A stretch of DNA of 46,090 nt from a virus. The DNA lies in IMG/VR virus record IMGVR_UViG_3300008450_000069, positions 1 through 46,090 of that record, one strand, 5' to 3'. Positions 13,552 to 32,437 of the stretch are shown here, piece by piece. Positions within the stretch are counted from its first letter, which is position 1; the number at the start of each line of letters is the position of its first letter. Below the pieces are notes generated by a model that saw only the letters and a program-made list of their open reading frames with translations, had not been told where the DNA came from and ran no database searches. The position numbers and the translations under genes are program-made.

Positions 13552-14061
13552 ATGAAGACCATCAAAAAAGACTACGCTGCAGTGATGTCACTGTTCACAC
13601 AAGCCATCACCGTACTAGAAGAAAACAAAGTCAAAAAGTCCGTGTTAGAGGCGGTACGTAGCCTACACAACGATGCGGTTGACTTAACTGCGAATAAGAA
13701 CTCCAATGGCAGTGGCTCAAAGACTACTGCACACTACGAGGACGGTAAATTAGTTGCCGTATTCTGCTACTACCACAAGCGTTGGGAATTAGTTGACCAT
13801 ATCGAATATGGCAATAAATCGGGCACTAAAACCGGCCTAAATACCATGTGTAAAGAAGGCGTGTCCGCTTGGACGAAAGCCAATAGAGCACACAACAAGT
13901 TGAAAGACGAATTGTTGCAGAAACTCTTCAAAGGCGAGCTGACAAGCGAAGAAGTTCAAGAGCAACTTGGTGCTGACCCAACAATCGAGCCGCACAGCGA
14001 TGAAGAGCACTCTTTTGCGACTTTGGACGACTTACATGCATTCTTCAATACTGAAGAGTAA
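13552..14061 (+). CDS. early protein, 169 aa, paralogue of the 164-aa protein at 16739
   Basis: GAGGAG precedes the ATG. The middle and C-terminal parts share a clear block with the protein at 16739-17233: TGLNTMCKEGVSAWTKA against TGLNTMCKAGVSVWTQA, followed in both by a helical stretch and a (T/S)(E/D)E-rich turn. The N-terminal helix (VLEENKVKKSVLEAVRS) and an acidic C-terminus flank a beta-rich core with aromatic residues. No biochemical function is known to me. Each copy has its own strong operator-bearing promoter, so both are probably abundant early products. Confidence 0.72.
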   Translation: MKTIKKDYAAVMSLFTQAITVLEENKVKKSVLEAVRSLHNDAVDLTANKNSNGSGSKTTAHYEDGKLVAVFCYYHKRWELVDHIEYGNKSGTKTGLNTMCKEGVSAWTKANRAHNKLKDELLQKLFKGELTSEEVQEQLGADPTIEPHSDEEHSFATLDDLHAFFNTEE

Positions 14062-16738: not shown

Positions 16739-17233
16739 ATGGCTATCAAAAAAGTGTTCGCCCCAATCCTGGCAATCATGGAATCAAACCTGTCTGCTTC
16801 TGTTGCTGACATTATTGACCAAGTTCGTGCTGTTACCAGCGCTAAAACTGGTGGCGGTGGTGGTAAAGCGACTAACTTCTTCCGCAATGAAGAAGGTGTT
16901 GTTACTGCCGTTAAGTGTTACGCTTTCAATAAATGGATGGACCCACGCTTAGTGCCGTTTGGTACTAAAGCCAACACGCCTACTGGTCTGAACACCATGT
17001 GTAAAGCCGGCGTAAGCGTATGGACTCAAGCCCAGGCTGCCTTTAAGAAAGGTAAAGATGCTGTTGTTGCCGACCTGCTGGCCAACAAAATCACCAGCGA
17101 CGAAGCGCAAGCTAAGATTGCTGACCTGGAAGCTGCCCGTGTACTGGTGCCTGAACTGCCAGCCGATATTCAGGGCTTTGACACCCTGGAAGACTGTCAG
17201 AACAACAGCCTGGTTAACGGCTTATCTGCGTAA
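16739..17233 (+). CDS. early protein, 164 aa, paralogue of the 169-aa protein at 13552
   Basis: Own promoter, GGAGAT ribosome site and own terminator make this a monocistronic, probably highly expressed gene. N-terminal helices, a flexible GGGGG linker (about residue 38), a beta-rich core (VVTAVKCYAFNKWMDP), then the shared block TGLNTMCKAGVSVWTQA and a helical acidic C-terminus. It differs from the paralogue in the N-terminal third. Codon choice is visibly more uniform (many GCT/CTG) than in neighbours, consistent with high expression. Function unknown. Confidence 0.75.
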   Translation: MAIKKVFAPILAIMESNLSASVADIIDQVRAVTSAKTGGGGGKATNFFRNEEGVVTAVKCYAFNKWMDPRLVPFGTKANTPTGLNTMCKAGVSVWTQAQAAFKKGKDAVVADLLANKITSDEAQAKIADLEAARVLVPELPADIQGFDTLEDCQNNSLVNGLSA

Positions 17234-22796: not shown

Positions 22797-23228
22797 ATGA
22801 CCCGTATTAATACTATCGACCCTAAGCACTTGTTAGACCAGCACCTGTTTATTGAGTACCGCGAAATCACTCGCGTGGCCAAGTTGGCACGTGGTCCTAA
22901 GCCTGGTGAGAAGTTTCCTCAGCAATACACACTAGGCACAGGCCACGTTACTTTTTTCTACGACAAAGGCACGTTTCTGCAAAATCGCATTGCTTTGCTG
23001 TACAACGAGCTAATTGCCCGCGGCTACAAGCCAACGTTAAAAGTTTATCCTGACCATGCACCTGGCTTACATAAAGACTGGTTCCCATCGCGCGCCGACC
23101 ATGTTATTAACTTGACTCGGCTACAAAGCAAGCAGTGTGAACGTCCTGGCTTCTACAAGCTAAACAGCAAGCCTGCACCTGAAATGCACTATCACACTAT
23201 GTTTGAGGAGCACTACAATGCTTATTGA
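22797..23228 (+). CDS. denV: pyrimidine dimer DNA glycosylase (T4 endonuclease V type), 143 aa
   Basis: It removes UV cyclobutane pyrimidine dimers and nicks the abasic site. The opening MTRIN, the DQHL...EYREITRV string and GTGHVTFFYDKGTFLQNR match T4 DenV. Thr2 (the N-terminal nucleophile after Met removal), Glu23 (catalytic) and Arg22/Arg26-equivalents are present. A late segment with Trp/Tyr (RPGFYKLNSKP) is also kept. Length is close to T4's 138 aa. It is unusual in a 46-kb phage and suggests exposure to sunlight; it is expressed from its own operator-bearing promoter. Confidence 0.9.
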   Translation: MTRINTIDPKHLLDQHLFIEYREITRVAKLARGPKPGEKFPQQYTLGTGHVTFFYDKGTFLQNRIALLYNELIARGYKPTLKVYPDHAPGLHKDWFPSRADHVINLTRLQSKQCERPGFYKLNSKPAPEMHYHTMFEEHYNAY

Positions 23229-25066: not shown

Positions 25067-25270
25067 ATGAATTCAAATACCGCACGCCAAATTATTAAGC
25101 AGAATACGTTCTTAGACCGCTATTCGCATAAAAGCAAACTTGGCGACAAGTCTACCAGCATTGATATATTATCTTTAGACTTTGCTGCGCTCGAGCAACG
25201 CGTACTCGCAACAATGTCTAGCGACGAAACTGTAAAACTTACAGCAAATGCTGACCTGTACGCGGAGTAG
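25067..25270 (+). CDS. 67-aa ORF resembling motif A of family A DNA polymerase
   Basis: CTGGAGCAACATT gives a good start site. Residues about 32-52 read SIDILSLDFAALEQRVLATM, closely like the catalytic motif A (D-x-x-x-x-E-x-R) of pol I-type enzymes; the real polymerase here has YADYAQLELRTICAITD. No other polymerase motif is present. It may be the relic of a displaced polymerase gene, or a small protein that kept this fold piece. It lies between the SSB terminator and the polymerase start (8-bp gap). Confidence 0.6.
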   Translation: MNSNTARQIIKQNTFLDRYSHKSKLGDKSTSIDILSLDFAALEQRVLATMSSDETVKLTANADLYAE

Positions 25271-25277
25271 CCACATC

Positions 25278-27035
25278 ATGAAACGAATATGCGTCCCGTT
25301 TGCCACGATGCTGGCGAACATACTACCTAACACAGAATACTTTGCTGATACTGAAACTATTGGCTTCTATGGCAAAATCCGTCTTCTACAGCTGTATCAT
25401 CGCGACTGGGATGCTGTGCAATACTGCGAGCGCCCTAGCGGCCTTGACTTTATTACTTTAGTTACTGCTATTGAGCGCGCCGGTAGCACGCTAGTTATGC
25501 AGAATGCTCACTACGACTTAACGACTGCGCAGCAGCAAGGCAGCACTTCCTGGGTGCCTAACGTCGAGTTTATCCAAGACACGTTGCTTTTAGGCCGCTT
25601 AGCATTGCCTAGACTGGAGAGCCACTCGTTAGATTCTCTGATGGACAAAGTGCTGGGCTTTGACCCGTACAAGAAGTTAGGTCTGGATAAGAAAACACTT
25701 CAGAAAAGTAACTGGGCAGGCGAGCTAACCGAAGACCAATTAAACTACGCTTGCGTTGACGTGTACTACCTACCGGCCGTGTACGACGCAGTAAAGCACC
25801 TGCGCGATTCTGAGAGCTACAAGTTAGACATGCTGACTATGCGCTATTGCCTGGACTTCCAATGGAACGGCATGCCTGTCGCTCAAGCACGGCTTGATGC
25901 GCTGTACCATAAAACTGCGCGCATTGTAGCAGATAACCCTCTTCCTATCAATGTCAACAGCTGGCAACAAGTGCGACCTTACATTGGCCAGGATGAGTCG
26001 GACGATTTAGCTTTAGCTAAGTTTGCGCACAACGGCTGCACCAAGTCAGCCACTATCAGAAAAGTCCGGAAAGCTAAAAAGCTTCTTAGCTTCTTAGACA
26101 AATTTGATACGGCCGCAGGAGTCATTCTAGGCAAGTTTAAACCGGCTGCAAAATCAGGTCGATTAACGTCAGACGACCAGAATCTTCAGCAATTGCCGCG
26201 AGCGTCTAAAGAAGCATTCGGTGTTGACGAAGACGAAGTATTAATCTACGCCGACTACGCGCAGCTAGAGCTTCGTACAATTTGCGCTATCACCGACTGT
26301 CAAGCTATGGCAGCGCTATTCCGTGCGGGTGTTGACTTGCACACGTACACTTCTGATATGCTATTTGGCACCGAAGAAGAGCTAGCTTTGCAGTACGCAG
26401 ACCAAGAAGAACTGCGCAAAATCCGTAAGCGTAACCGCCAGGTGACAAAGACCGCAAACTTTAGCTTTTTGTACGCTGGCGGCATTGGCATGTTTATTGA
26501 CATTCTGGTAAAAACTACAGACATCTGGTTAGACGAAACTACTGCCGGTGTGACTAAGCGTCGCTGGGCTAATCTGTGGACTGAGATTACTGCCTGGCAG
26601 CAAAAAGGTATTTCTAAGCAGCAGCGCAAACAGACCGGTAAAACGCCACTAGGCCGCGAGTACATGGCCGAACGTGTTACTGACTATTTAAATATTGAGA
26701 ACCAGGGCGCAGGCTCTGAAGTAGCTAAGTTAGCTCTGCATTACTTGTACAAAGCTGGCTTCAAAGAAAAGCATCCTGATTACAAGCTGTGCAACTTCAT
26801 CCATGACAGTTTTATTATCCGTGGTCCTAACCGCGACGAGTACAAGCAAGTTGCAGAGCTTTTAGCTACCTGTATGCAGCGTGCTTGGTTTGCTATGGCT
26901 GAGCTAATGAAAATCAAAGACCTGCCGATGCCTGTGCAAGTAGCTGTAGGTCATAACTGGGGCGACATCGAGAATGACGAAATTGAGAACCTCTACAACT
27001 ACGAACTCGAAGGCACTGCAACCTTCGGATTATGA
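25278..27035 (+). CDS. family A DNA polymerase with 3'-5' exonuclease, 585 aa
   Basis: The start at 25278 lies 8 bases after the preceding ORF. The DnaQ-like exonuclease has YFADTETIGF (ExoI Asp/Glu, about residue 23), QNAHYDLT (ExoII, about 78) and YACVDVYYL (ExoIII, about 157). The polymerase domain has motif A IYADYAQLELR (about 324-334), motif B RQVTKTANFSFLYAGG (about 386-401) and motif C FIHDSF (about 512-517). It lacks the 5'-nuclease domain and is short (T7 gp5 is 704 aa), resembling compact podovirus polymerases. No thioredoxin-binding loop is evident. Confidence 0.93.
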   Translation: MKRICVPFATMLANILPNTEYFADTETIGFYGKIRLLQLYHRDWDAVQYCERPSGLDFITLVTAIERAGSTLVMQNAHYDLTTAQQQGSTSWVPNVEFIQDTLLLGRLALPRLESHSLDSLMDKVLGFDPYKKLGLDKKTLQKSNWAGELTEDQLNYACVDVYYLPAVYDAVKHLRDSESYKLDMLTMRYCLDFQWNGMPVAQARLDALYHKTARIVADNPLPINVNSWQQVRPYIGQDESDDLALAKFAHNGCTKSATIRKVRKAKKLLSFLDKFDTAAGVILGKFKPAAKSGRLTSDDQNLQQLPRASKEAFGVDEDEVLIYADYAQLELRTICAITDCQAMAALFRAGVDLHTYTSDMLFGTEEELALQYADQEELRKIRKRNRQVTKTANFSFLYAGGIGMFIDILVKTTDIWLDETTAGVTKRRWANLWTEITAWQQKGISKQQRKQTGKTPLGREYMAERVTDYLNIENQGAGSEVAKLALHYLYKAGFKEKHPDYKLCNFIHDSFIIRGPNRDEYKQVAELLATCMQRAWFAMAELMKIKDLPMPVQVAVGHNWGDIENDEIENLYNYELEGTATFGL

Positions 27036-27286: not shown

Positions 27287-28078
27287 ATGTCTTTCGAATC
27301 CCAATATGCCGCGCTAGTCAGTCATGTTTTACGCTGCGCTGAGCGCCGTAAAACACGTAATGGCTATACGCTGTCTATGTTTAACCACACGCTGTCGTTC
27401 GACTTAGAGAATGAGTTTCCAATGATTCTCGGCCGTAAGATGTACCCTAAGGGTATTTTTGGCGAGCTTGCGGCTATGCTGCGCCAGCCTAAGCATATTA
27501 ACGACTTCAAAGCTTGGGGCTGTAACTACTGGGAAAAGTGGGCTGACGCTGACGGCAGTATTCGCGTCGACTATGGTAATGCCTGGTTTGACTTCAATGG
27601 CGTAAATCAGATTGCACAGCTCAAAGAAGCACTGATTGACTCGCCTGAAAGCCGTCGCATGGTTATTAGCGGCTGGCGACCAGGTGCAGACCTTAGCTTG
27701 CCGTGCTGTCACTACGCTTACCAGTTCTATGTCCGCGACGGTAAGTACCTGGATATGCAGTGGATTCAGCGTAGCGCTGATGTGATGATTGGCATTCCAT
27801 CTGACGCAGTGTTTGCAGCTGCGTGGATGATTGCAATTTGCCAAGAGTTCACCTGGTTAACTCCTGGTCGTTGTATGATGGTGTTCGGTGATACTCATAT
27901 CTATGAAGAACATATTCCAGGCGCTGTTCAGTATATCCGCCAAGCACAGCGTGTTGATACTGCTACCTGGAATACTGCTACAAATATCAAAGGCAGCGAC
28001 TTTTGTACTTTCACTCCAGACTGGGTTTATGTTTACGGTCAGTCTGGCCCAGCCATTAAATTTGAACTGAAGGATTAA
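27287..28078 (+). CDS. thymidylate-synthase-family dCMP (hydroxy)methylase candidate, 263 aa
   Basis: ThyA fold: catalytic LPCCHYAYQFYV (nucleophile Cys141 by alignment to E. coli Cys146), phosphate-binding QRSAD (Arg162, Ser163, Asp165) and GDTHIY (His204, Tyr206). The key position Asn177 of E. coli TS, in GLPFN, reads GIPSD here (Asp173). Asn selects dUMP; Asp at this site is known from dCMP hydroxymethylase of T4 (Asp179) and from engineered TS variants that use dCMP. I therefore infer a dCMP methylase or hydroxymethylase, not ordinary TS. Length is TS-like. First gene of a cassette with NTP pyrophosphatase and deaminase genes. Confidence 0.8.
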   Translation: MSFESQYAALVSHVLRCAERRKTRNGYTLSMFNHTLSFDLENEFPMILGRKMYPKGIFGELAAMLRQPKHINDFKAWGCNYWEKWADADGSIRVDYGNAWFDFNGVNQIAQLKEALIDSPESRRMVISGWRPGADLSLPCCHYAYQFYVRDGKYLDMQWIQRSADVMIGIPSDAVFAAAWMIAICQEFTWLTPGRCMMVFGDTHIYEEHIPGAVQYIRQAQRVDTATWNTATNIKGSDFCTFTPDWVYVYGQSGPAIKFELKD

Positions 28079-28081
28079 ACT

Positions 28082-28660
28082 ATGCTTTTTCAAAGAGTTG
28101 CCAACTGGAATGCTCGCCGTTACGAGCAAGAACTCTGCGTGCCATTGCAGCTAGGCCTACAACGCGAAGAGTTTGACGAAACTGTTAATGCTGCAAATGA
28201 AGTAGAGCGCTTAGATGGTCATATTGACCAGATTTTTGTAGCTCTTGGCGGTATCTGGAAAGCAGGTGCAGACAACCGCGATGCCTGTACTGCTTTAGAA
28301 GCTGCAGACAATTACTGGCAATTAATGTGCGTGGACGATAACTATGACATGGTTATGGACAGGCTTAAAAGTCATTTGGACATGCTGGCTTACACGTTAA
28401 TTCAGCCGGCCACTACGCCAACTTTAGTAATGATTTTTGCCGGTATTGCTGCGCTTAACTATGTTGCTTTGCGCGTATACGGTTACGAAGATACGGAGCC
28501 CTTCCAAGCCGCTGAAATTGTATGCGACAGCAATGATTCTAAAACGGTTCAGAAAACCGCCACAGACGTTAAAGCTAACATAGACAAAGGCGCGCTGTTC
28601 ATTGCACCTGAGCCGCGCTTGCAAATTATCGTCGACGCAATGCTAGCTCGGAGGCAGTAA
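28082..28660 (+). CDS. all-alpha NTP pyrophosphatase (MazG-like), 192 aa
   Basis: Hydrolyses nucleoside triphosphates to monophosphates. The metal-binding pattern REEFDE (E29, E30, E33) followed by LDGHIDQIF (D45, D49) is the EExxE...ExxD signature of the MazG/HisE superfamily. The C-terminal string EIVCDSNDSKT then NIDKGALFIAPEPRLQIIVD is usual for phage members. In this context it is a candidate dCTPase (T4 gp56-like in role), making dCMP for the neighbouring enzyme and depleting dCTP. Substrate is inferred from context. It lies 3 bp after that gene and abuts the next. Confidence 0.75.
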   Translation: MLFQRVANWNARRYEQELCVPLQLGLQREEFDETVNAANEVERLDGHIDQIFVALGGIWKAGADNRDACTALEAADNYWQLMCVDDNYDMVMDRLKSHLDMLAYTLIQPATTPTLVMIFAGIAALNYVALRVYGYEDTEPFQAAEIVCDSNDSKTVQKTATDVKANIDKGALFIAPEPRLQIIVDAMLARRQ

Positions 28661-29337
28661 TGACTAAAGATGAAGTATTTGCTCTGGCTTTAGAAGCCGC
28701 AACTAAAAGCACAGCCAGAAAGCGTAAAGTTGGTGCTGTACTTGCTGTATTTGAACACGAGAACTTCCGAGTGCTGAGTGTTGGCAATAACTACAATTTT
28801 GAGAACCCAAATGGGTCGTGCGAAGACAACGAAGGCAATACACTGTCAACAGTGCTGCACGCTGAAATAAACGCCATAAACTCGCTGCCTACGGACGTTG
28901 GCTTATTCAGTAATCTGCATCTTTTTGTAACGCATGAGCCTTGTGCTAACTGCGTCGCAGAATTTGCAGATTTGATGGCTACTGGAGTAGACGTCAAGTC
29001 GCGCATCCACGTTGTTAGCTCTGGCATGAAGTTTGACGACGGCAAAATGCGCTATGACTTAATTCCAGCTATTGCTACCGAAGGCCTGGCTGCCGTACTA
29101 ACCTACGGAGCTAAAAAGTACAAGCCGAACAATTGGCGTTCTGTAGACCCGCAGCGCTATGTCGGTGCTTTTGAGCGTCATTGGCAGGCTTATATTTGTG
29201 GCGAGCTAATTGACAGTGAATCTGGCTTGCCACATTTAGCTCACTGTATGACCAATTTAGCTTTCTTACTTGAGCTTGGCCATGCGCCTGCGTGTCAGCA
29301 GACTATCGCTGACTACCTCAAAAACTCTGTAAAATAA
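28660..29337 (+). CDS. cytidine/dCMP deaminase-like and DUF5664 pyrophosphohydrolase fusion, 225 aa
   Basis: N-terminal deaminase domain (residues 1-118): zinc ligands in LHAEINAINS (H67, with E69 as proton shuttle) and HEPCANC (C95, C98). C-terminal domain (about 122-212): KFDDGKMRYDLIPAIA, YGAKKYKPNNW, RHWQAYICGELID and SGLPHLAHCMTNL, the DUF5664 dATP/dGTP diphosphohydrolase N-domain signature (MazZ type). The two activities act on deoxynucleotides and are fused here. The deaminase part is short for a phage dCMP deaminase, so whether it is active, and on which base, is uncertain. Confidence 0.8.
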   Translation: MTKDEVFALALEAATKSTARKRKVGAVLAVFEHENFRVLSVGNNYNFENPNGSCEDNEGNTLSTVLHAEINAINSLPTDVGLFSNLHLFVTHEPCANCVAEFADLMATGVDVKSRIHVVSSGMKFDDGKMRYDLIPAIATEGLAAVLTYGAKKYKPNNWRSVDPQRYVGAFERHWQAYICGELIDSESGLPHLAHCMTNLAFLLELGHAPACQQTIADYLKNSVK

Positions 29338-30445: not shown

Positions 30446-31616
30446 CTGCGTTGAGCGCTTGCTAGACCACGGCCTTGTATACTTAGCAGCAGAAGAACGC
30501 ACAGGCAAGACGCTGGCCAGTCTAGTAGCAGCGCGCGACTACCTAGCAGCAGTTCAAAAGCGAATGTCCGTGTTAGTCGTAACTAAAGCTAAGGCTCAAG
30601 CAGGCTGGGCAGACACGCTGGAAAAATACCATCCTGGCATGCAAGTGGCTATTACAAGCTATCACAGCGCTTACAAGCATGATGGCGGCGATTTTGAGCT
30701 TGTTATACTCGACGAGTCGCATTCCACGCTATCTGCATATCCTAAGCCTGGTAAGATTCAGCAGCAGTTGCGTAAGCTGTGCAAAGGCAAGCCTATCATT
30801 TATCTTAGCGCTACACCTTATGCACAAGGCTACGCGCAGTTGTACCATCAGTTGCAAGTTAGCTCGTACTCTCCATTTCGCTCGTACTCAAACTTCTACT
30901 CCTGGCACCATTCTTACGGCAAGCCCTACACTATAAAGATTATGGGCAACGACGTATGCCAGTATGACCGCGTGCGTGAAGCTGAAGTAGCAGCAGCTGT
31001 AGAACACCTGTTCATAACAGCAACCCGAGCTGAACTTGGCTTTGAGCATGAGCCTACAGACAATGTGCACTACGTAGAGCTAGACGAAGACACTAAGTAC
31101 GCTTACAACGAGCTGTTGCAACACAAACTAATTGAGTTCAGCAGCGCTGGCATGGTAGTATGCGATAACGTGTCAAGGCTTCGTACTGTGCTACACCAGC
31201 TTGAAGGCGGCACAGTCAAGAATGGCGATATTGGCTACGTATTAGCCAACCGTGAAAAAGCTGACTACATCCTTAAGCACTTTGGCGACACCAAAGATTT
31301 AGTTATCATGTACAACTACAAAGCAGAGCTGACCAAGCTGGAGGCTATATTCGAGCGCGCGCTTCTGTTGCAAGCCACGAGCTACGCAGAAGGCGTAGAC
31401 TTAAGCATGTATAAGCATTTAGTTATATACAGCCAAGACTTCAGCACTGCCCGCCATACCCAACGCCGAGCTCGGCAAGCTAACATGGACAGAACTGAAG
31501 CTATAACTGTGCACTTCTTGCTGGTCAAGAAAGCACTGTCTGAACAAGTGTATAAAACAGTTAGCGTCAATAAGCGTAACTACGTCGATTCGTTATTTGA
31601 GAAGGTAAAACTATGA
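30408..31616 (+). CDS. SNF2/SF2-type helicase, 402 aa
   Basis: SF2 ATPase with AEERTGKTLAS (motif I, about residues 27-37), VILDESHS (DEAH-like motif II, about 98-105), YLSATPYA (motif III, about 130-137) and a C-terminal RecA-like lobe with ATSYAEGVDLS and QRRARQ (motif V/VI, about 325-367). Phages use such enzymes for replication restart or recombination. The ATG at 30408 follows GAGGTAACAG. It overlaps the following ligase gene by 4 bp. Confidence 0.85.
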   Translation: MQPRPHQLSLAASCVERLLDHGLVYLAAEERTGKTLASLVAARDYLAAVQKRMSVLVVTKAKAQAGWADTLEKYHPGMQVAITSYHSAYKHDGGDFELVILDESHSTLSAYPKPGKIQQQLRKLCKGKPIIYLSATPYAQGYAQLYHQLQVSSYSPFRSYSNFYSWHHSYGKPYTIKIMGNDVCQYDRVREAEVAAAVEHLFITATRAELGFEHEPTDNVHYVELDEDTKYAYNELLQHKLIEFSSAGMVVCDNVSRLRTVLHQLEGGTVKNGDIGYVLANREKADYILKHFGDTKDLVIMYNYKAELTKLEAIFERALLLQATSYAEGVDLSMYKHLVIYSQDFSTARHTQRRARQANMDRTEAITVHFLLVKKALSEQVYKTVSVNKRNYVDSLFEKVKL

Positions 31617-32437
31617 AAGACTTAATGAAGCCGTATCAGAAAACTCCGCAACTTAACACGCTGCGCTACCCGGTAATCGCTACGCCTAAGCTTGACGGTA
31701 TTCGTTGTGCTATTGAGAACGGCAAGCCTAGAACGTTCAACAAAAAGCCAATACCAAACACCTGGGTAAACGACGTGCTAGGCATGTACGCACATTTGAC
31801 TGAAGGCTTTGATGGCGAACTAATGTTAGTTGATGGGGACTTCAACAGTGTGCAATCTGGCATAATGAGCCAAGACGGTCGACCGCGTTTCAGATTCGTA
31901 GTGTTTGACTTGCACAACAGCCTACTGCCGTACAAAGCGCGCATCGAGCAGGTGCACAAACGCGTGGCTGAAGTACGCAAGACTGAAGACTTAGAAGCGC
32001 TTGTGTTTGAAGCTGTGACTGCGAAACTGTGCCGCAATGAAATGGAGCTGCAAGGCTACTGGAATGAATGTGTCGAGTTGGGTTATGAAGGCGTTATAGT
32101 TAACGCACCTGAAGGTTTTTATAAAAACGGTCGGTCTGGTCTAAAAGAGCAACTATCTATCAAGCTAAAAATATGGCATGACGATGAAGCAGTCGTTATC
32201 GGCTTTGAAGAAGAAATTGCAGCAGATGGTACGCCTAAAGGCCGTGTAGGTCGAGTCACTCTGCGTCACAATAGCGGTGTGGAGTTTGGAGCTGGCGGTA
32301 TAACTGATGATGAAAAAGCTCGGATGTGGAATAAGCCAGAGCAGTACCTAGGTAAGACTGGCACGTTTAAATATCAAGATTGGCCTACAGGAGGCAAACC
32401 GCGCTTCCCAGGTTGGAAAGGTGTGCGCCATGACTGA
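31613..32437 (+). CDS. ATP-dependent DNA ligase, 274 aa
   Basis: Seals nicks with ATP. Nucleotidyltransferase motifs: I TPKLDGIR (adenylated Lys26), III GFDGELM, IIIa FVVFDL, IV YEGVIVN, V SIKLKIWHDDEAV, followed by an OB-fold with a G-K-F-type motif (GTFKYQDWPTGGKPRFP). Compact size as in T7-type ligases without the N-terminal DNA-binding domain. ATGA-coupled to the helicase gene; 8-bp overlap with the next gene. Confidence 0.9.
   Translation: MKDLMKPYQKTPQLNTLRYPVIATPKLDGIRCAIENGKPRTFNKKPIPNTWVNDVLGMYAHLTEGFDGELMLVDGDFNSVQSGIMSQDGRPRFRFVVFDLHNSLLPYKARIEQVHKRVAEVRKTEDLEALVFEAVTAKLCRNEMELQGYWNECVELGYEGVIVNAPEGFYKNGRSGLKEQLSIKLKIWHDDEAVVIGFEEEIAADGTPKGRVGRVTLRHNSGVEFGAGGITDDEKARMWNKPEQYLGKTGTFKYQDWPTGGKPRFPGWKGVRHD

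What the first reader, a model, noticed from the sequence alone, without database searches (positions are those of the whole stretch)
27287..28078. Thymidylate-synthase-family enzyme with Asp at the dUMP/dCMP selector: likely dCMP methylase or hydroxymethylase
Seen: the catalytic LPCCH, QRSAD and GDTHIY motifs of ThyA are intact, but the GLPFN motif reads GIPSD, placing Asp173 where E. coli TS has Asn177. Known: Asn recognises dUMP, while T4 dCMP hydroxymethylase has Asp (Asp179) and the Asn-to-Asp change in Lactobacillus TS shifts it to dCMP. Inferred: this phage makes 5-methyl- or 5-hydroxymethyl-dCMP and may carry modified cytosine. This would be unusual for a 46-kb podovirus-type phage. 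Against it: no obvious monophosphate kinase or glucosyltransferase is encoded.
Basis: partly seen in the sequence, partly recalled or inferred. Interest (0 to 1): 0.82.

Follow-up and report, generated by a model that had tools for sequence, protein, structure and literature searches.

The report
Phage thymidylate-synthase relative that uses dCMP
A small virus of bacteria carries a relative of the thymidine-making enzyme with one key residue changed so that it most likely methylates cytosine nucleotides instead, next to two partner genes that would supply and recycle those nucleotides, so the virus may carry altered cytosine in its DNA.

Summary
The ORF at 27287-28078 (263 aa) is a full-length thymidylate synthase homologue (PF00303, 6e-50) with Asp173 at the E. 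coli Asn177 selector. It belongs to a separate, well-supported clade of Kafunavirus-like phages (Edwardsiella KF-1, Vibrio VPMS1, Dickeya Amaethon, Pseudoalteromonas PH1, 80 IMG/VR loci); 86 of 88 aligned members have Asp.

It is probably a dCMP enzyme, but the T4-type hydroxymethylase reading fits poorly. The published hydroxymethylase signature (acid three residues before the catalytic Cys, Ser/Thr two before the Tyr, no C-terminal tail) is not met: it has Leu, Val and a full-length TS-type tail. That favours 5-methyl-dCMP, as in phage Xp12. A clade-wide Asp at the Val93 site leaves hydroxymethylation open.

The next genes are a MazG-like NTP pyrophosphatase (probable dCTPase) and a dCMP deaminase. 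The two clade members with Asn instead of Asp have lost or broken the pyrophosphatase and show no deaminase, which ties the Asp to this cassette.

Whether virion DNA contains modified cytosine is untested. Asp177 enzymes in cytosine-modified phages are already published; this clade's residue combination looks like a new variant.

The parts
27287..28078 (+). Thymidylate-synthase-family enzyme, predicted dCMP methylase (263 aa)
   Evidence: PF00303 6.4e-50; Z 29.7 to E. coli TS; Asp at the Asn177 selector
27803..27805 (+). codon GAC, Asp173 = E. coli Asn177 selector
27569..27571 (+). codon GAC, Asp95 = E. coli Val93 position, invariant in the clade (88/88)
27698..27700 (+). codon TTG, Leu138 = E. 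coli Leu143 = T4 HMase Asp145 (hydroxymethylase signature not met)
   Evidence: PMC6400193
27707..27709 (+). catalytic Cys141 = E. coli Cys146
28055..28075 (+). C-terminal tail IKFELKD, aligned one to one with E. coli I258-I264
28082..28660 (+). MazG-like NTP pyrophosphohydrolase with intact EExxE motif, probable dCTPase
   Evidence: phrog_671 1.7e-12; relatives hit PF01503; E29 E30 E33 D49 invariant
28660..29337 (+). dCMP deaminase (HAE ... PCANC zinc motif) fused at its C-terminus to a PF18909 dGTP_diPhyd_N domain
   Evidence: PF00383 4e-10, PF14437 9.1e-7, PF18909 1e-29; motif
25248..27035 (+). family A DNA polymerase with 3'-5' exonuclease, upstream of the cassette
   Evidence: PF00476 1.5e-30, PF01612 3.4e-9
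31613..32437 (+). ATP-dependent DNA ligase of the PF14743/PF01068 kind that MetaGPA found enriched in cytosine-modified contigs
   Evidence: PMC8670742

Best explanation
The protein is a thymidylate-synthase-fold enzyme that takes dCMP instead of dUMP and most likely transfers a methyl group (methylene plus hydride from 5,10-methylene-THF) to make 5-methyl-dCMP. The downstream MazG-like pyrophosphatase would convert dCTP to dCMP, which both feeds the methylase and keeps plain dCTP away from the polymerase. The deaminase after it would turn dCMP into dUMP and/or 5-methyl-dCMP into dTMP. 5-methyl-dCMP would then be phosphorylated by host kinases and built into phage DNA, protecting it from restriction. 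Shown here: the residue pattern, its clade-wide conservation, the gene cassette, and joint loss in Asn revertants. Inferred: substrate, product, partner activities, and incorporation into DNA.
For: Asp177 in 86/88 clade members against Asn in 88/89 canonical TS. Asn-to-Asp at this site switches E. coli and L. casei TS to dCMP, giving 5-methyl-dCMP (cited in PMC8670742). Catalytic residues E58, W80, Y94, C146, R166, D169, H207, Y209 (E. coli numbering) are all kept. Hydride-transfer features are kept: Leu143, Trp83 (87/88), His147 and a C-terminal tail ending at the E. coli length in 87 of the 88 readable members. Same gene order (TS, NTP-PPase, deaminase, PDDEXK nuclease) in KF-1, Amaethon, PH1 and others; EExxE intact in all 52 Asp-bearing loci checked; deaminase in 34/39 records. 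The Asn members: L092 has TS followed directly by the nuclease, with neither partner gene; L050 has a pyrophosphatase with the EExxE acids replaced (D, T, K), no deaminase in its 21-kb record, and a DHFR; none of 42 Asp loci with the nuclease in view lacks both partners. Phages of the Xp12 group carry the same trio, annotated pyrophosphohydrolase, TS and dCMP deaminase, and their TS also has Asp177. TS with Asp177, dCMP deaminase, PRA-PH and PF14743 ligase are the domains enriched in cytosine-modified phage contigs (PMC8670742).
Against: No activity or DNA-composition data exist for any member that I could find. The invariant Asp at the Val93 site sits where T4 HMase Ser94 helps to place the attacking water, so hydroxymethylation is possible. 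The clade keeps His147, whereas position 147 was the other residue that differed between modified and unmodified contigs in MetaGPA, so it is not the typical modified-contig enzyme. DHFR is found in only 3 of 37 records, although a methylase makes dihydrofolate; host DHFR could cover this. Windows with plain cytosine cannot be excluded: 5-methyl-dCMP might only be an intermediate to dTMP.
Confidence: 0.6

Rival explanations
1. dCMP hydroxymethylase that reached the same chemistry as T4 gp42 by another route: the carboxylate that activates water sits at the Val93 position (Asp95 here) instead of at the Leu143 position.
For: Asp95 is invariant in 88/88 members and absent from canonical TS (V/I), Xp12-type (A) and T4-type (N) enzymes. 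PMC6400193 states that T4 Ser94, in contact with Asp145 and the substrate water, is equivalent in the structures to E. coli Val93. DHFR is rare in the clade, and a hydroxymethylase needs none.
Against: Signature acid at -3 from Cys is Leu in 88/88; the residue two before Tyr is V/L/I, not Ser/Thr; TS tail and Trp83 are kept, and T4 gp42 lacks both. No T4-type dNMP kinase in 38 clade records (T4 itself rings); no carbamoyltransferase or GT2 glycosyltransferase. The pattern used to fetch the IMG/VR members partly selected for DYG or LPCCH, although the 8 members found by plain tblastn agree.
Confidence: 0.22
2. Alternative thymidylate route without DNA modification: dCMP is methylated to 5-methyl-dCMP and the adjacent deaminase converts it to dTMP, so that the phage makes thymidylate while bypassing dUMP.
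For: Deaminase lies within two genes in most members; the phages carry no second, Asn-type TS (one PF00303 gene in 39/39 records). [quoted passage not shown] I recall but did not read its content.
Against: The pyrophosphatase (if a dCTPase) would be pointless without a need to remove dCTP. 7 of 42 loci have the pyrophosphatase and no detected deaminase. Xp12 itself does put 5-methylcytosine in its DNA.
Confidence: 0.1
3. Ordinary dUMP thymidylate synthase in which the Asp is tolerated.
For: The rest of the active site is TS-like; one member of the canonical clade (L291) also has Asp.
Against: Asp is kept in 86/88 members over deep divergence (down to 41% identity), and its loss goes with loss of the partner genes. 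Published Asn-to-Asp mutants prefer dCMP.
Confidence: 0.06

Closest known systems
Xp12-type dCMP methyltransferase (Pamexvirus/Bosavirus TS; read here from DoCa6, DLP4, PaMx74 because the Xp12 record was not in the collection)
   Same: Asp177; no acid at -3 from the catalytic Cys; C-terminal tail kept; gene lies with a pyrophosphohydrolase and a dCMP deaminase
   Different: Separate clade; Asn at -3, Pro at 147, Phe at 83, Ala at 93 and a long insertion, against Leu, His, Trp and Asp here; DHFR next to it in two of the three relatives read, rare here
T4 gp42 dCMP hydroxymethylase
   Same: TS fold, catalytic Cys, Glu and Tyr, Asp at the selector; dCTPase and deaminase in the pathway
   Different: No Asp145 equivalent (Leu), no Ser94 (Val), Trp83 instead of Val85, TS tail present, no dNMP kinase, no glucosyltransferase found
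Canonical thymidylate synthase ThyA (E. coli)
   Same: Same fold, full-length alignment, all catalytic residues, tail, Leu143, Trp83, His147
   Different: Asp for Asn177 and Asp for Val93; 26% identity over the structural alignment
Asp177 TS of cytosine-modified contigs in MetaGPA (PMC8670742)
   Same: Asp177 and the same neighbouring Pfam domains (PF00383, PF14437, PF01503-like, PF14743 ligase)
   Different: His147 kept here, although position 147 also differed in that set; no carbamoyltransferase found

Membership tests
Thymidylate synthase superfamily (PF00303) | Full-length family match and catalytic Cys/Glu/Tyr/Arg/Asp/His set | tested here: met
dUMP thymidylate synthase (ThyA) | Asn at position 177 | tested here: not met
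   Asp173
T4-type dCMP hydroxymethylase | Asp at the selector (T4 Asp179) | tested here: met
T4-type dCMP hydroxymethylase | Acid three residues before the catalytic Cys (T4 Asp145) | tested here: not met
   Leu138; Leu in 88/88 clade members, Asp in 81/81 T4-type and in SPO1
T4-type dCMP hydroxymethylase | Ser/Thr two residues before the catalytic Tyr (T4 Ser94) | tested here: not met
   Val94; V/L/I in the clade, Ser in 81/81 T4-type
T4-type dCMP hydroxymethylase | No TS-type C-terminal tail | tested here: not met
   Tail aligned to E. coli 258-264
T4-type dCMP hydroxymethylase | Groups with T4 gp42 in a tree | tested here: not met
   Separate clade, SH-aLRT 100 (quick method)
dCMP methyltransferase of the Xp12 kind (by function) | Asp at the selector with hydride-transfer features kept | tested here: met
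dCMP methyltransferase of the Xp12 kind (by function) | Gene cassette with pyrophosphohydrolase and dCMP deaminase | tested here: met
dCMP methyltransferase of the Xp12 kind (by descent) | Groups with Xp12-type TS in a tree | tested here: not met
   Separate clades; deeper branching order not resolved
dCMP methyltransferase of the Xp12 kind (by function) | dCMP to 5-methyl-dCMP activity; 5-methylcytosine in virion DNA | not testable with these tools
   needs enzyme assay and nucleoside mass spectrometry

The most novel reading that the evidence does not exclude
The Kafunavirus-like clade is a third TS-derived dCMP-modifying enzyme family, distinct from T4 gp42 and from the Xp12 type, with a re-placed active-site carboxylate (Asp at 93), and its small podophages carry fully modified cytosine, either methylated or hydroxymethylated by a different mechanism from T4.
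Probability: 0.45. Interest if true: 0.68.

Novelty: new variant of a known kind. Interest (0 to 1): 0.52.

Why it matters
If right, cytosine modification at the nucleotide level is a standard feature of a widespread group of small podophages annotated simply as having 'thymidylate synthase'. The clade includes culturable phages (KF-1, VPMS1, Amaethon, PH1), so the prediction can be tested with DNA from existing isolates. Natural Asn revertants and the Asp at the Val93 site offer a way to ask how TS-family enzymes choose substrate and product.

Tried and rejected
Xp12 itself could not be read: its accession MT664984, LR743532 (tried in the belief that it was Bosa) and NC_010356 (a guess) were not in the collection, so relatives served. 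A published HhaI digest of 'VPMS1' exists (PMC4870561): the sequenced VPMS1 has 148 HhaI sites with a largest fragment of 1.8 kb, and the text names no band peculiar to VPMS1, but the gel image is not held, so it neither supports nor refutes modification. Papers on KF-1 with restriction data: none found. Kinase, carbamoyltransferase, GT2 glycosyltransferase and cytidylate kinase searches were negative; other transferase families were not searched record-wide. PDB profile search with the pyrophosphatase gave no match at E 0.01. Atom positions of the model are not available, so where Asp95 points could not be measured. The typed E. coli TS sequence was from memory; a PDB check failed because my E-value limit was too strict, though its alignments and numbering agree with the published residues. 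Tree root and number of Asp gains could not be settled: with the selector column left out, the fewest changes counted over Asp and Asn states is 5, including the Asn revertants.

Full report
The reported ORF is real and complete: 27287-28078 on the + strand, 263 aa. It matches thymidylate synthase (PF00303 6.4e-50; phrog_160 2.7e-63) and its predicted structure aligns over its whole length, tail included, with E. coli TS (Z 29.7, 255 residues). The selector residue is Asp173 (E. coli Asn177, T4 gp42 Asp179). The window is a single virus record with one TS gene.

The nearest relatives, at about 43-53% identity, are phages annotated simply as encoding thymidylate synthase: Dickeya Amaethon, Edwardsiella KF-1/IW-1, Pseudoalteromonas PH1, Vibrio VPMS1, two spring-water podophages and Pelagibacter Kolga. 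In the first four and in ctXG1253 the gene is followed by an NTP pyrophosphohydrolase gene and, except in VPMS1, by a dCMP deaminase; ct1fd225 has both in a different order, and Kolga differs more. The window has the same order, with the deaminase fused to a PF18909 domain. IMG/VR gave over a hundred further relatives, of which 80 were read.

Residue census. The window's clade (88 readable): Asp177 in 86, Asn in 2; Asp93, Leu143, Cys146 and His147 in all; Trp83 in 87. Canonical TS (89): Asn177 in 88, Val/Ile93 in 86, Leu143, His147. T4-type (81): Asp177, Asp143, Asn93 by sequence, Thr147. Xp12-type relatives (39): Asp177, Asn at -3 from the Cys in nearly all, Ala93, Pro147. The C-terminal tail ends at the E. 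coli length in 87 of the 88 readable clade members. Caveat: IMG/VR members were fetched by patterns containing either [VL]DYGNAW or LPCCH, so conservation of these two stretches is partly built in; the selector is not in either pattern, and the eight members found by plain tblastn show the same residues.

In a maximum-likelihood tree without the selector column, the window's clade is one group with SH-aLRT 100, apart from canonical TS, Xp12-type and T4-type enzymes (quick method). The order of these groups is not resolved, so independent gain of Asp is neither shown nor excluded.

Product. The T4 hydroxymethylase ternary structure paper (PMC6400193) gives as signature an Asp (or Glu) three residues before the Cys, a Ser/Thr two before the Tyr, and no TS tail. 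All are failed here, so filing this as a T4-type hydroxymethylase is not warranted. What remains is a TS-like active site with Asp177, which in engineered TS gives 5-methyl-dCMP (as cited in PMC8670742). The one reason for doubt is the invariant Asp at the Val93 site, which the same paper equates in the structures with T4 Ser94, next to the substrate water. I put methyl at about three to one over hydroxymethyl.

Natural reversion. Two clade members have Asn: L050 and L092. In L092 the TS gene is followed directly by the PDDEXK nuclease, with no pyrophosphatase or deaminase. L050 keeps a pyrophosphatase relative in which the EExxE acids are replaced, has no deaminase in its 21-kb record, and carries a DHFR. 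Among 42 Asp loci in which the nuclease is in view, 30 have both partners, 12 have one, none has neither; EExxE is intact in 52 of 52. The two may be one event (they lie near each other in the tree), so this is support, not proof.

Whole-record searches: one TS per phage in 39/39; deaminase in 34/39; DHFR in 3/37; T4-type dNMP kinase in none of 38 clade records and none of three Xp12-type relatives, with T4 as positive control; no carbamoyltransferase or GT2 glycosyltransferase. Lack of a kinase therefore does not argue against a methylase, and no further decoration of a hydroxymethyl group is in sight.

Known ground. MetaGPA (PMC8670742) found TS with Asp177, dCMP deaminase, MafB19-like deaminase, PRA-PH and DNA ligase domains enriched in phage contigs whose cytosines resist deamination; the window has this set (PRA-PH only through its relatives). 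AXL1, a relative of Xp12, resists cutters with G/C in their sites (PMC9206674). The idea of Asp-type TS enzymes in cytosine-modified phages is thus published; I found no paper that applies it to Kafunavirus-like phages.

Noticed in passing
window 1-46090: GATC is wholly absent (0 found; 75 expected, sd 7, from dinucleotide shuffles), while all other 4-base palindromes except CTAG are near expectation. VPMS1 has 3 against 84 expected. Within the clade the avoidance is patchy: near zero in about 18 of 64 records, absent in others. GATC avoidance is known in some enterobacterial phages, but its cause here, and why it persists if cytosine is modified, is unexplained.
   Followed up: partly
L318:8001-8642 and L319:8001-8660: Two clade TS genes lie in Gracilibacteria MAG contigs and are readable only with TGA as Gly (15 in-frame TGA each); both keep VDYG, LPCCH and GVPSD. 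They may be phages of Gracilibacteria with the host's recoded genetic code.
   Followed up: partly
L050:7989-8816 and L092:1237-2022: Clade TS genes with Asn at the selector; partner genes lost or degenerate.
   Followed up: yes
L291 TS gene: A TS of the canonical clade with an isolated Asp at the selector (GVPFD), Leu143, His147; may be a fresh switch to dCMP.
   Followed up: no
28660-29337: dCMP deaminase fused at its C-terminus to a PF18909 (dGTP_diPhyd_N) domain, shared with KF-1, Amaethon and PH1.
   Followed up: partly
13552-14061 and 16739-17233: Two genes that both match phrog_10459 (unknown function), so probably a duplication.
   Followed up: no
22797-23228: T4 endonuclease V-like pyrimidine dimer glycosylase (PF03013, phrog_1183), also in VPMS1.
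   Followed up: no
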